From: Roseovarius sp. THAF27
GTDB taxonomy: Bacteria > Pseudomonadota > Alphaproteobacteria > Rhodobacterales > Rhodobacteraceae
NCBI RefSeq assembly: GCF_009363655.1
Contig: NZ_CP045393.1
Span: forward strand, 3,100,001 to 3,164,000
Length of the DNA: 64,000 bases
Reading direction: 5' to 3'
Below the pieces are notes generated by a model, which was not told the origin of the DNA, made no database searches, and saw only the letters and a program-made list of their open reading frames with translations. Of the stretch, positions 28,299 through 42,503 are shown piece by piece (position 1 is the stretch's first letter; each line of letters starts with the position of its first letter). The translations under genes and the position numbers were made by a program.

Positions 28299-28455
28299 TG
28301 CCCCCTCTGTCCTTTCGCCTGAGATCGCTATCCCTTCGGCGCCGCAGGATTTTCCCGCGGTCTCTCCAGAGTCGTCCATCGGCCGGTCCTTGCGCCTGAG
28401 AGTTTCCGGGGCGGTTGCTCCTTCGGCACCGGCAACGCCGGTTCTCCCGTTCCGA
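28299..28455 (-). promoter_or_regulatory. Tandem glycine riboswitch
   Basis: Two consecutive glycine aptamers read on the minus strand upstream of gcvT. The first contains GGAGAAC, GCCGAAGGAGC and CTCTCAGGCGCAAGGACC. The second contains CTCTGGAGAG, GCCGAAGGGATAGC and ATCTCAGGCGAAAGGACAGAGG. The order and the short linker are those of the cooperative tandem type that switches on gcv operons when glycine is abundant. The ligand and effect are family knowledge; the motifs are seen directly. Confidence 0.93.
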
Positions 28456-28590
28456 TACTCAACGAGCGTAGTGACCGCTCCGGACCTCTGCAAGCAGAAT
28501 GACGGACCAGGATCACAGTTCGGTCGTCCGCCTTGACCTTTGCCCCCGCACCTGTTGACATCAAGGCGCGAACAGAAAGGCGGTTTCCAC

Positions 28591-34680: not shown

Positions 34681-34708
34681 GAGAACCCGAGTAGCGCTGG
34701 ACTGCCGC

Positions 34709-34873
34709 GCGAGCGCCAGACCGCGGGATGGCGACCAACAGATATTCAGATCGCTTTATCTCCGCCACATCCGCAAAACCTCCAATCGAAGCGCTCACGG
34801 AACCCAATCGCCAGCCCGGGGGGCGGTCTGGCGATCGCGCGGCGGCGCGCAAAGCGCGCCTTGATTCCGCGCG
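34709..34873 (+). repeat. Structured element, copy A (about 165 nt)
   Basis: The 3' half forms ATCGCCAG/CTGGCGAT closing a G-rich loop. It continues directly into an outer stem CGCGCGG/CCGCGCG that encloses an inner stem GGCGCGC-AAA-GCGCGCC with a 3'-side bulge TTGATT. The 5' half shares spaced blocks with copies B (40634-40796) and C (40862-41026), such as CGCTTTATC and the run before AATCGCC. It lies in the gap before the amidase gene. An in-frame extension of the amidase through it is considered spurious. Confidence 0.75.
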
Positions 34874-40298: not shown

Positions 40299-40321
40299 GC
40301 CAGTCGTCGAGGGACGGGAAA

Positions 40322-40354
40322 CGGGGGCCTTCCGGGGCCTCCGTTTTCTTTTGG
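40322..40354 (+). terminator. Rho-independent terminator after the pot operon
   Basis: CGGGGGCC-TTCCGG-GGCCTCCG with one G-T pair forms an 8-bp stem, followed by TTTTCTTTT. It starts 24 bases after the potD stop. Orientation and T-run fit termination of the pot operon. Confidence 0.85.
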
Positions 40355-40372
40355 GCGCCTGCGCAACGCGCC

Positions 40373-40516
40373 ATGACCTCCCCGACATGCAGAAAAAGGG
40401 GGGCTTCAGGCTACTATCACATCCAATACGTGAACTCCCCCCACGACCTCTACAAAAGGTTCATCAAGCCCTTCTCTGGACCGGCCACGAAGAACCTCAG
40501 CGGCTACATCCGCTGA
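40373..40516 (+). CDS. Weak 47-residue ORF or gene fragment
   Basis: An ATG-started frame with C-terminal half GYYHIQYVNSPHDLYKRF and onward, aromatic and not G+C-biased like random frames of this genome. It could be the tail of a decayed gene or a short real peptide. No ribosome-binding site of note and no family recognised. Confidence 0.2.
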   Translation: MTSPTCRKRGASGYYHIQYVNSPHDLYKRFIKPFSGPATKNLSGYIR

Positions 40517-40633
40517 CTAGAGGTGGGGCCGGCGGGTATGCGTCCAGCGGAGGTTGCCCGCGCATAATACACGAAGTGTGGCGCAGAGGTCTGCTTTGAG
40601 CCCTTTGCGGACACGTGTGATCTATATCCCCGG

Positions 40634-40796
40634 GCGCCATCGACGGGCCGCGGAGCGGCGATCCGACGGTGGTTCGGCAGCGCTTTATCCAGGCCAAACC
40701 CGAAATAGGATTGAGCGATGGACCGAACGTCACCCAATCGCCGGGCCGTGGGGGCGGCCCGGCGATGGCGCGGGGCCTGCGGCCCGTTTCCGCGCC
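40634..40796 (+). repeat. Structured element, copy B (about 163 nt)
   Basis: 3' half: ATCGCCGGGCC/GGCCCGGCGAT, an 11-bp stem with loop GTGGGGGC. It is followed at once by an outer stem GGCGCGG/CCGCGCC enclosing GGGCC-TGC-GGCCC with a 3'-side bulge GTTT. The 5' half has GGCGATCCGACGG and GCGCTTTATCCAGGCCAAAC, aligned with copies A and C. The base changes relative to A and C are largely paired, which suggests selection on RNA structure. Confidence 0.78.
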
Positions 40797-40861
40797 GGGG
40801 CTGTAGATCAAACGTCTTTTATGTACGGTTCGAGCCCTTGTGAAACACCGGGTTCGAGCAC

Positions 40862-41026
40862 CCAGCCGGTTAACAGCCGCGAAGCGGCCCGGCCATCGTC
40901 AGCCGCTCCCTTGGGCTGGCGATTTGGTGAGGCTGGGCGCAACGATCCTTCCGAGGATGTGTTTGGCAGGCACAAAAGGCTTCGTAGTTGCCGTCGGATC
41001 ACCACCCCAGGGGCTGACGCTCGCCT
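40862..41026 (-). repeat. Structured element, copy C (about 165 nt, reverse orientation)
   Basis: Read on the minus strand, it carries GGTGATCCGACGG, GCCTTTTGTGCCTGCCAAAC, then ATCGCCAGCC/GGCTGACGAT (one mismatch) around a loop CAAGGGAGC. An outer GCCGG/CCGGC stem encloses GCCGC-TTC-GCGGC with a bulge TGTTAA. It lies 65 bp from copy B, tail to tail. Confidence 0.75.
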
Positions 41027-41086
41027 CCGTCGTGACCGGCAGCAAAGTCCGCAAAACGGACCAACACGCTTTGCGGACACCCCCCC

Positions 41087-41121
41087 AAAAAAACGCCCGC
41101 GACGATCAACTCGCGCGGGCG
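41087..41121 (-). terminator. Intrinsic terminator for the sugar dehydrogenase gene
   Basis: Minus strand: CGCCCGCG, a 12-base loop region, then CGCGGGCG followed by seven T residues. It is 70-100 bases beyond the dehydrogenase stop. Confidence 0.85.
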
Positions 41122-41151
41122 TCCTACGTTGAAACTCAAGGCGTTTCAGGT

Positions 41152-41184
41152 TCCGCGAAAACCCGTGATCCGGGTTTTCGCGGA
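41152..41184 (-). terminator. Perfect 14-bp hairpin just after the sugar dehydrogenase stop
   Basis: TCCGCGAAAACCCG-TGATC-CGGGTTTTCGCGGA, a perfect 14-bp stem with a 5-base loop, 5 bases downstream of the stop codon. No T-run follows directly; with the next hairpin it forms a double structure. Confidence 0.7.
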
Positions 41185-41189
41185 CCGCT

Positions 41190-42503
41190 TCAGTTCATGC
41201 TTTCCGCGGTCACCTTGTGGATCTCGCCTTCTTCCGTCGCGATATACAGCGCGTTGTCCGGCCCCATGGCAAGCCCGCGGAACCTGGCCGAAAAGCCAAG
41301 CGGCATCCGTGTGATCCCGTTGATCCCCAGGCCGTCGGGCGTGATGCTGATCAGGTCGATCCTCGACCCGATCGGCGTGTCACCAAAGCCGATACCCATG
41401 ATGCCAACGGCCAGGCGCCCCTCGTAGATGCCCCAGTTTTCGCCCGTCAGGAAGGCGGCGGAACTGGTGCCCTGGGAAAACCCGTTATTGTTCCATGTCG
41501 GCGGCATCAGGTCGTCGAAACGCGTGTCGCTCATGGGGGTGTAGGCCGCGCGTATCGCGGGGTCCACGGCTTCGGTCTGGTTCGGCTCGTAGCCACAGTA
41601 CTCGTCCGGGCACTCGCCCCGGCCACCCGTGTTCTGGGCCGGATCCCAGCCGCCGTTGCCGCCATTCACAAGGGCCGTGATCTCGTCGTTGTGCCAGGGG
41701 CCATGCTCGGCGGTGAACGCCTTCCCGTCGCTCGGGCGGAAATCGATGCCCTGGACGTTTCTGTGCCCATAGGTGTAGATTCGCGGGTCAAAGCCTTCGG
41801 GCGGATTGTTATCCGGGTGGGCATTGCCGTCCCCGTCGATTCTCAGCACCTTGCCGCAAAGCAGTGTTCCGTCCTGCGGGCAAACCCCGCGGTGACGGTC
41901 GCCGCCCGTAACCCACAGATAGCCGCCGGGTCCGATGCGGATCCTGCCGCCGTTATGCGCGCCGGGTCCGCCAAAGGGCTGATCGGAATCGAACGGCTTG
42001 AACTGGATGTCGGTCACGATATCGGTTCTGTCGGACACGCTCGCCAGGTCCTCGCCGACCTTGAACTTCATCACGATGTTGCCGTCGCATCTTTCGAAAT
42101 TGGTCGTGCAGCCATCGCCGTGATACTTGTTGGATGTCGAGTAGACGAACAGCGTCCGGTTGTCCTCGAAATGCCGATCCACGGCCACGCCCAGCATTCC
42201 GGCCTGACCTTCGCAGATCAGATCGCTGCCGACATCCGCATAGCCTTCGGACCCGTCGATACCATAGAGCGCGTTCACGGTGCCATCCGGCATCCTTACA
42301 GACAGACCGTCGCATTTCTCCGTGAAGAACATCGTGCCGTCCGGCAGAAAGGCCATGTCCCAGGGTGTGTCCAGCTCCTCCAGCACCACCGACGACGTGA
42401 TCTTGGGAACATCCATCGCCCCGTCGTGCTCGTCCGACCATGCGGCGGGGGCCGCGGTCATCACACTCAATGAAGCGACAGCCGATAAAAGCCGTGTGCT
42501 CAT
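41190..42503 (-). CDS. PQQ-dependent sugar dehydrogenase-like protein (GSDH family), exported
   Basis: A 437-residue periplasmic beta-propeller protein. The signal peptide covers about residues 1-22 (ending PAAWS). Propeller features: LDTPWDMAFLPDGTMFFTEK, HNGGRIRIGPGGYLWVTGGD (about 182-201), YGHRNVQGIDFRPSDG (about 243-258) and EHGPWHNDEI. These match the soluble aldose dehydrogenase/GSDH family that binds PQQ and calcium. Several Cys (CPQDGTLLC, CPDEYCGY) could form periplasmic disulphides. Substrate unknown; PQQ synthesis genes are not in the window. It appears monocistronic with terminators downstream. Confidence 0.85.
   Translation of the reverse strand: MSTRLLSAVASLSVMTAAPAAWSDEHDGAMDVPKITSSVVLEELDTPWDMAFLPDGTMFFTEKCDGLSVRMPDGTVNALYGIDGSEGYADVGSDLICEGQAGMLGVAVDRHFEDNRTLFVYSTSNKYHGDGCTTNFERCDGNIVMKFKVGEDLASVSDRTDIVTDIQFKPFDSDQPFGGPGAHNGGRIRIGPGGYLWVTGGDRHRGVCPQDGTLLCGKVLRIDGDGNAHPDNNPPEGFDPRIYTYGHRNVQGIDFRPSDGKAFTAEHGPWHNDEITALVNGGNGGWDPAQNTGGRGECPDEYCGYEPNQTEAVDPAIRAAYTPMSDTRFDDLMPPTWNNNGFSQGTSSAAFLTGENWGIYEGRLAVGIMGIGFGDTPIGSRIDLISITPDGLGINGITRMPLGFSARFRGLAMGPDNALYIATEEGEIHKVTAESMN

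What the first reader, a model, noticed from the sequence alone, without database searches (positions are those of the whole stretch)
40634..41026. Two convergent copies of an undescribed structured element with compensatory changes
Copies B (plus) and C (minus) are about 165 nt each, and share spaced sequence blocks and the same fold. A stem starting ATCGCC closes a G-rich loop. A second stem follows directly and encloses a third stem with a 3-base loop, with a 4-6 base bulge always on the 3' side. Sequences of the stems differ between copies but pairing is kept (ATCGCCGGGCC/GGCCCGGCGAT in B, ATCGCCAGCC/GGCTGACGAT in C, ATCGCCAG/CTGGCGAT in A). Paired substitutions point to selection on RNA structure. 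I recall similar sequence recurring in Rhodobacterales intergenic regions but know of no published family.
Basis: partly seen in the sequence, partly recalled or inferred. Interest (0 to 1): 0.85.

Follow-up and report, generated by a model that had tools for sequence, protein, structure and literature searches.

The report
Structured mobile intergenic repeat in Rhodobacteraceae
Two facing copies of a 165-letter folding DNA/RNA element belong to a large, apparently unnamed family scattered after genes in marine Rhodobacteraceae; it moves around genomes, yet its fold is kept where it lands, which suggests that it does something.

Summary
Copies B (40633-40796, +) and C (40862-41029, -) share one fold with copy A (34704-34873, +). 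They belong to a family with 68 distinct places in this 4.46 Mb genome, 52 at 100 bits or more, and with matches in 79 of 198 genomes drawn one per genus from the bacterial family, own genome included. No match was seen outside that family. No Rfam model matches.

On an unconstrained alignment of 61 copies, 9 of 29 pairs covary significantly against a tree-based null.

Copies lie between genes, at gene 3' ends, rarely between divergent genes, with no strand preference. Near-identical copies at unrelated loci show recent movement, yet no associated Y1 transposase or linked gene was found. In orthologous copies the arms change far less than the flanks.

Best reading: a non-autonomous mobile repeat whose folded core is kept after insertion, probably as a 3'-end RNA module. 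RNA-level action is inferred.

The parts
40600..40827 (+). B long unit: core plus outer flanks (left end TTTGCGGACA; the right end is TATGTACGG here, TATGTCCG in most other B copies)
   Evidence: 86-93% identical to nine other B copies in the own genome, one of them over 176 nt only
40633..40796 (+). Copy B, core element
   Evidence: 147.4 bits to model R1, training sequence
40634..40651 (+). B: 5' arm (end segment X and box a) of the long-range stem
   Evidence: inverted repeat I1, 94% complementary to 40754-40771; covarying pairs in the family
40652..40662 (+). B: box b, pairs with b'
   Evidence: RNAalifold and pair counts
40663..40736 (+). B: conserved centre/apical loop (CTTTAT, GCCAAA, ACCCAA motifs)
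   Evidence: columns T60, T61, T64 and A115 of A3 the same in 109 or 110 of 110 rows
40737..40747 (+). B: box b'
   Evidence: (I2)
40754..40773 (+). B: box a' and segment Y (pairs with X, or alternatively with Z)
   Evidence: (I1)
40774..40796 (+). B: inner hairpin with 3-base loop, 3' bulge, end segment Z
   Evidence: sequence; in the family 2 of 6 Y:Z and 2 of 3 inner pairs covary within their set
40827..41060 (-). C long unit
   Evidence: 82-90% identical to other C copies
40862..41029 (-). Copy C, core element, convergent to B
   Evidence: 126.3 bits to model R1, training sequence
34704..34873 (+). Copy A, core element without B/C-type ends, 23 bp after the end (34680) of a called gene
   Evidence: 160.9 bits, training sequence; dozens of the listed hits run from about query 404-407 to 573-578; gene

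Best explanation
This is a family of non-autonomous mobile repeats of Rhodobacteraceae. Shown: the 165-nt core has a conserved long-range stem with a ~75-nt conserved loop and a 3' accessory hairpin; young copies are shared over units of about 220-260 bp; copies lie between genes, mostly after gene ends; orthologous copies keep their arms while flanks diverge. Inferred: the element is copied by machinery acting in trans; its outer ends decay after insertion while the core is kept, because in read-through transcripts it folds and acts as an RNA 3'-end module (a stabiliser, processing site or block between convergent transcripts), tolerated in both orientations.
For: Structure: RNAalifold picks the long-range stem on two MAFFT alignments; 9 of 29 pairs significant within their set against a tree-based null; lower RNA energy than the local set in 60 of 61 sequences. 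Family: 86 model matches in the own genome, 68 distinct places after removing 18 overlapping echoes; 79 of 198 genomes. Mobility: five pairs of near-identical copies within one genome each, with flanks that give no further match, the best 98.2% over 227 bp and 98.3% over 236 bp. Place: of 83 copies with both neighbours called and no gene overlap, 40 convergent, 19 sense, 23 antisense, 1 divergent. Constraint in place: four orthologous pairs changed at 6/390 arm, 12/282 centre and 83/480 flank positions; a fifth, L047/L073, at 4/93, 11/73 and 46/120. Single strand: in 62 non-redundant copies, G.U cells 74 against A.C 18 in the stems.
Against: No transcript data. No orientation preference (19 sense, 23 antisense), which a cis-acting RNA usually shows. 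In 40299-41189 no promoter-like site, and two terminator-like sites (1.1 expected by chance), both outside the cores. No clean empty site was found: the best candidate could not be aligned cleanly and others had rearranged neighbours. Mobile partner unknown. G.U cells are concentrated at two stem columns; without those the ratio is 36 to 18. 'Arm' in the orthologue counts means the first 32 nt and everything from b' on, unpaired bases included, and flanks are 60 nt each side, partly coding. The flanks of L223/L227 are partly unalignable; without that pair the four-pair sums become 3/292, 9/211 and 36/360.
Confidence: 0.55

Rival explanations
1. A selfish element whose single-stranded DNA hairpins are the substrate of an unknown recombinase or transposase; the fold serves movement only and has no host role.
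For: Recent movement; no orientation preference; the excess of G.U over A.C also fits single-stranded DNA; some changes occur in all four boxes at once, as expected if one protein reads both hairpins.
Against: Arms are kept in orthologous copies. No Y1 (HUH) transposase match in the own genome, and 9 of 79 genomes with and 8 of 119 without the element carry one. Among 260 coding stretches from the neighbourhoods of copies (129 of 142 loci), no protein family recurs in 4 or more loci; five recur in 3.
Confidence: 0.28
2. A double-stranded DNA site: cruciform or protein-binding site (gyrase, nucleoid protein) as proposed for REP/BIME elements; no single-strand fold matters.
For: Placement after genes without strand preference resembles that of REPs (PMC3733652, passages).
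Against: G.U pairs outnumber A.C mismatches in the stems, unexpected if both strands counted alike. Length and conserved loop bases exceed a simple palindrome.
Confidence: 0.08
3. The compensatory changes come from template switching between arms (quasi-palindrome correction), not from selection on a fold.
For: Some substitutions are found in all four boxes of one copy (L061, the second copy in L096 and L064; L082, L086 and L041 by eye).
Against: It would homogenise arms but not by itself slow their change; arms change about ten times less than flanks in the four orthologous pairs. It does not explain the conserved loop bases.
Confidence: 0.06
4. A cis-regulatory 5' leader RNA or riboswitch, or an independently transcribed small RNA.
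For: Conserved loop bases and a possible switch between X:Y and Y:Z pairing.
Against: 1 of 83 copies lies between divergent genes and 23 of 42 codirectional copies are antisense; no flanking gene family recurs in 4 or more loci.
Confidence: 0.03

Closest known systems
bcr1-type interspersed repeats of the Bacillus cereus group
   Same: Intergenic repeats; bcr1-3 are described as structurally and functionally similar to MITEs, and 84 of 165 and 62 of 155 copies of all bcr families were found in mRNAs of two strains (PMC3446304, passages). The ~155-bp length and compensatory changes of bcr1 are recalled.
   Different: Different phylum; no sequence or fold comparison was made here, and the original bcr1 papers were not read.
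REP/BIME elements, GTAG and CGTC super-families
   Same: Mainly downstream of coding regions; CGTC REPs prevail in Alphaproteobacteria and apparently lack a dedicated transposase (PMC3733652, passages).
   Different: REPs are 20-40 bp hairpins with a GTAG or CGTC tag; this core is ~165 nt with a long-range stem and conserved loop. A CGTC-type dimer is nested inside some copies.
CIR repeats of Caulobacter and other Alphaproteobacteria
   Same: ~110-bp intergenic repeats of Alphaproteobacteria with two arms and a GANTC site at a loop (review PMC2229807, passages). Here 53 of 109 copies carry GANTC in the 3' bulge.
   Different: Longer, with a nested long-range stem; GANTC missing at that place in 56 of 109 copies; no model match outside the family in the class sample. 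CIR sequences were not compared: the original paper is not held.
ERIC, Correia/NEMIS, RUP and RPE elements
   Same: Small non-autonomous mobile repeats of about 100-200 bp with stable long stem-loops that can affect transcripts (PMC2229807, passages).
   Different: The review tabulates terminal inverted repeats for these four and target duplications for three of them; here end repeats are imperfect and none of the five young pairs shows an obvious duplication.

Membership tests
Any Rfam 15 family | Score at or above the curated threshold | tested here: not met
   Over the window only a glycine riboswitch elsewhere; over 40500-41200 the only match at E up to 1 lies outside the cores and below its threshold.
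GTAG-REP / RAYT system | Partner Y1 (IS200/IS605-type) transposase in the genome | tested here: not met
   PF01797 at E up to 1e-6: none in the own genome; 17 of 198 genomes, 9 of 79 with and 8 of 119 without the element.
CGTC-REP | 20-40 bp palindrome tagged with CGTC | tested here: not met
   The core is ~165 nt and starts with a GCCGCGC-type segment. The nested insert of G012 looks like two such units.
MITE | Non-coding unit present in near-identical copies at unrelated sites | tested here: met
   Five of nine tested pairs, 93-98% over 218-260 bp; the other four matched over 63-174 bp or not at all.
MITE | Terminal inverted repeats | tested here: inconclusive
   B-type ends share TTTGCGGACA/TATGTCCG; A-type cores lack them.
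MITE | Target-site duplication | tested here: inconclusive
   None obvious by eye at the borders of the five young pairs, but these borders are ends of local alignments.
bcr1-type structured repeat | Conserved fold with compensatory changes | tested here: met
bcr1-type structured repeat | Transcription of copies | not testable with these tools
   No RNA-seq.
CIR | Conserved GANTC at a loop | tested here: inconclusive
   53 of 109 copies at one position.
Integron attC site | R and L boxes with the RYYYAAC/GTTRRRY core | not tested
   Consensus recalled; considered because of the box order only.

The most novel reading that the evidence does not exclude
A domesticated mobile RNA: the family encodes a two-state fold, a long rod (X:Y, a:a', b:b') against three hairpins (a:b, b':a', Y:Z), in which the four boxes and the three end segments coevolve, and which is kept at dozens of gene 3' ends per genome as a host-wide transcript-end or RNA-processing system, moved by machinery that is neither a Y1 transposase nor linked to it.
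Probability: 0.2. Interest if true: 0.8.

Novelty: new variant of a known kind. Interest (0 to 1): 0.6.

Why it matters
The family is common in the Rhodobacteraceae sampled, yet no Rfam model matches it and the nine paper searches made here found no description. It can be modelled and annotated at once. It offers a natural test of whether mobile repeats become functional after insertion, because young and old copies, orthologous copies and tandem copies occur together, and it lacks an obvious transposase.

Tried and rejected
Rfam search: nothing over the element. Single-sequence folding: uninformative. Y1 transposase as partner: not associated. Recurrent neighbouring protein: of 234 clusters from 260 coding stretches, none reaches 4 loci, 5 reach 3 and 16 reach 2 (one search had looked at the 14 largest clusters only). 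Empty sites: at 3189544 of the own genome the gap is shorter in G323, but the sequences do not align well enough to call it empty; places near window 31816 in G006 and near 821259 in G323 had further differences. A generic TTTGCGGAC genome motif: 7 in 464 kb against 3.3 in single-base shuffles, the three in the window all at the B/C units. GANTC as a conserved function: present in only half of the copies. Intrinsic terminator: no hit inside the cores. Plasmids with the B-C pair: no match; phages with copy A: no match. True bistability: the local set is on average 17 kcal/mol worse than the long-range set, so the two-state idea rests on covariation, not energy; the three significant local pairs may be transitive effects of the long-range pairs.

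Limits: the number of candidates scored per genome was capped at 150, 69, 14, 27 and 9, so copy numbers are lower bounds and absences are soft. The gene caller is a simple one of my own. Copies in one intergenic region were counted separately. The tree-based null is my own imitation of the R-scape idea, not R-scape. Paper searches cover open-licence PubMed Central only.

Full report
What was checked. The finding names copies B and C at 40634-41026, with copy A elsewhere. All are in the sequence. A covariance model built from 30 own-genome copies places them at 40633-40796 (+), 40862-41029 (-) and 34704-34873 (+); they were in the training set, so their scores are by construction.

The family in its own genome. 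A DNA search with the B-C region found 56 matches in the 4.46 Mb genome, 40 of 92 candidates scored. They fall into three kinds: B-type (about 228 bp, 86-93% identical to the window copy), C-type (about 234 bp, 82-90%) and A-type, in which only the core is shared. The model finds 86 matches at E up to 0.01; 18 overlap a better one, leaving 68 distinct places, 52 of them at 100 bits or more. Thirteen neighbouring pairs lie less than 110 bp apart, 8 of them convergent as in the window.

Spread. All 23 other same-genus genomes of one sample have it, with 1 to 57 matches, and none of the 16 genomes of other families of the class in that sample. In the bacterial family, 79 of 198 genomes drawn one per genus, own included, have a match at E up to 1e-5; in a sample of 101 from the order, 53, each of them of the same family. 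In 289 genomes of the class only two have matches, the own genome and another of its family. On plasmids copy A has 7 places in 6 records of Salipiger and Sulfitobacter, with no listed gene under the best place of each record; phages gave none, and the B-C pair gave none on plasmids.

Anatomy. In order: X (GCCGCGC-type), box a (ATCG..), box b (..GGCGAT), a centre of about 75 nt with nearly invariant CTTTAT and mostly GCCAAA, a following ACCAAATCGCC that leads into box b', a G-rich linker, box a', Y (GCGCGGC-type), a small hairpin, a 3' bulge, and Z (CCGCGC-type). X and Z are near-direct repeats and both can pair with Y. Read by eye: where X departs to GCCGGGC, GCCGTGC, GGCCC or GCCGCCCC, Y and Z change with it in L061, L069, L091, L093, L100 and L101; in L078 and L092 only X changes, to a G.U pair.

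Covariation. On the MAFFT alignment A4 (61 copies: three from the window, 58 from 57 other genomes), not fitted to any structure, the long-range stem (X:Y, a:a', b:b') has 91.4% of cells paired, 17 of 29 pairs with a double change and a score of 0.246; shuffles give 0.098 (sd 0.006) and slid versions at most 0.067. The local set (a:b, b':a', Y:Z) has 88.9% and 0.147, against 0.083 shuffled and at most 0.077 slid. RNAalifold chooses the long-range stem. Against a null that redistributes substitutions on a FastTree tree, 9 of 29 long-range pairs are significant within their set, 3 of 18 local a:b/b':a' pairs, 2 of 6 Y:Z pairs and 2 of 3 inner-hairpin pairs; over all 12720 column pairs only two pairs of these sets, both long-range, stay below E = 0.05 with 300 replicates, and a third is at 0.06 (with 60 replicates three pairs were below 0.05, all long-range). 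In RNA energy terms the long-range set is better in 60 of 61 sequences, by 17 kcal/mol on average, and in 59 of 61 with DNA parameters. In 62 non-redundant copies, changes shared by a and a' against b and b' are seen at box position 5 (10 copies), 6 (3) and 7 (5, plus one odd set); changes in all four boxes are seen at positions 2 (2 copies), 4 (1), 5 (3) and, as two common states, 7. I read this as a main rod with a weaker alternative.

Which strand. Over 28 stem pairs in 62 non-redundant copies of the model-fitted alignment A3, G.U cells number 74 and A.C cells 18. Two columns supply 38 of the G.U cells; without these it is 36 to 18. This favours folding of one strand, as RNA or single-stranded DNA, but moderately.

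Place in the genome. I called genes with a simple codon-score method. Of 110 copies (49 own, 61 from relatives), 1 overlaps a called gene. Of 83 with both neighbours called and no overlap, 40 lie between convergent genes, 19 are sense and 23 antisense between codirectional genes, and 1 lies between divergent genes; 26 lacked a called neighbour. In 464 kb of the own genome, 18-22% of intergenic gaps are convergent and 14-24% divergent, depending on the minimum gap.

Mobility. Of nine pairs of copies chosen for similar scores within one genome, five are near-identical while their flanks give no further match: 98.2% over 227 bp, 98.3% over 236, 97.2% over 218, 93.3% over 240 and 93.1% over 260; three others matched only over 63, 134 and 174 bp, and one gave no hit. 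The shared unit is thus larger than the core. No target duplication was evident by eye. In Pararhodobacter oceanensis three copies stand in tandem.

Constraint after insertion. Pairs were picked by long matching flanks. 'Arm' means the first 32 nt plus everything from b' on, unpaired bases included; 'flank' means 60 nt on each side, partly coding. Four pairs changed at 6 of 390 arm, 12 of 282 centre and 83 of 480 flank positions; without L223/L227, whose flank is partly unalignable, 3 of 292, 9 of 211 and 36 of 360 (Fisher p for arm against flank 3.9e-7, arm against centre 0.034). L047/L073 adds 4 of 93, 11 of 73 and 46 of 120. Two further comparisons were left out of these sums: L222/L236 shares one flank only and looks paralogous (4/97, 3/71, 53/120), and L222/L225 is only 75% identical over its shared flank (6/97, 25/71, 51/120). 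In the comparison of window copy A with G006 a loop insertion spoils the automatic count (34/101, 7/70, 46/120). At the locus of copy A, G323 and G012 share an inverted copy in which the 5' arm differs at 0 of 31, the centre at 23 of 72 and the 3' part at 4 of 70 positions.

Partner. PF01797 matches 17 of 198 genomes, 9 of the 79 with the element and 8 of the 119 without; the own genome has none. Among 260 coding stretches found in 129 of 142 loci with copies, no protein family recurs in 4 or more loci.

How it most likely works. Shown: conserved fold, mobility, place, constraint. Inferred: that the fold acts in RNA at transcript ends. The lack of orientation preference is the main result against that step; the constraint in orthologues is the main result against a purely selfish element.

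Known relatives. The nearest kinds are bcr1-type repeats (PMC3446304, passages read), REP super-families (PMC3733652, passages read; PMC12306157, passages read) and the small mobile repeats reviewed in PMC2229807 (passages read). None is shown to be its family by the tests listed. That no description was found in print rests on the searches in one open library, of which I saw the listings.

Noticed in passing
L136 1329-1377 and L134 2071-2169 (orthologues of window 34818): A 44-nt CGTC-type palindromic dimer sits in the G-rich loop of the element in G012 but not in G323; G006 carries a larger insert with similar letters at the same spot, and L017 and L025 of the own genome have related inserts: nested mobile repeats.
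   Followed up: partly
window 34704-34873 against L135 2024-2199 and L136 1276-1493: At the same intergenic site the element is inverted relative to the flanking genes in G323 and G012, compared with G000 and G006.
   Followed up: partly
L285 2383-2903 and L258 4431-5131: Three tandem copies (L285, spaced about 180 bp) and three clustered copies (L258) in Pararhodobacter oceanensis, with differing centres but similar arms.
   Followed up: no
window 34806-34873 (query 507-574): In nine relatives (G010, G015, G016, G312, G321, G322, G324, G326, G343) there are hits of about 63-83 nt covering only the 3' half of the element at 85-92% identity; these may be separate short elements or copies with diverged 5' halves.
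   Followed up: no
window 41190-42503: The gene next to copy C lies among other neighbours in G006 and G323, so it seems to have moved in or out beside the B-C pair.
   Followed up: no
3' bulge of the element, A3 column 178: 53 of 109 copies carry GANTC here, while GANTC is depleted in 464 kb of the own genome (546 seen, 1555 expected from base composition).
   Followed up: partly
window 28375-28459 (-): Glycine riboswitch match, 52.6 bits.
   Followed up: no
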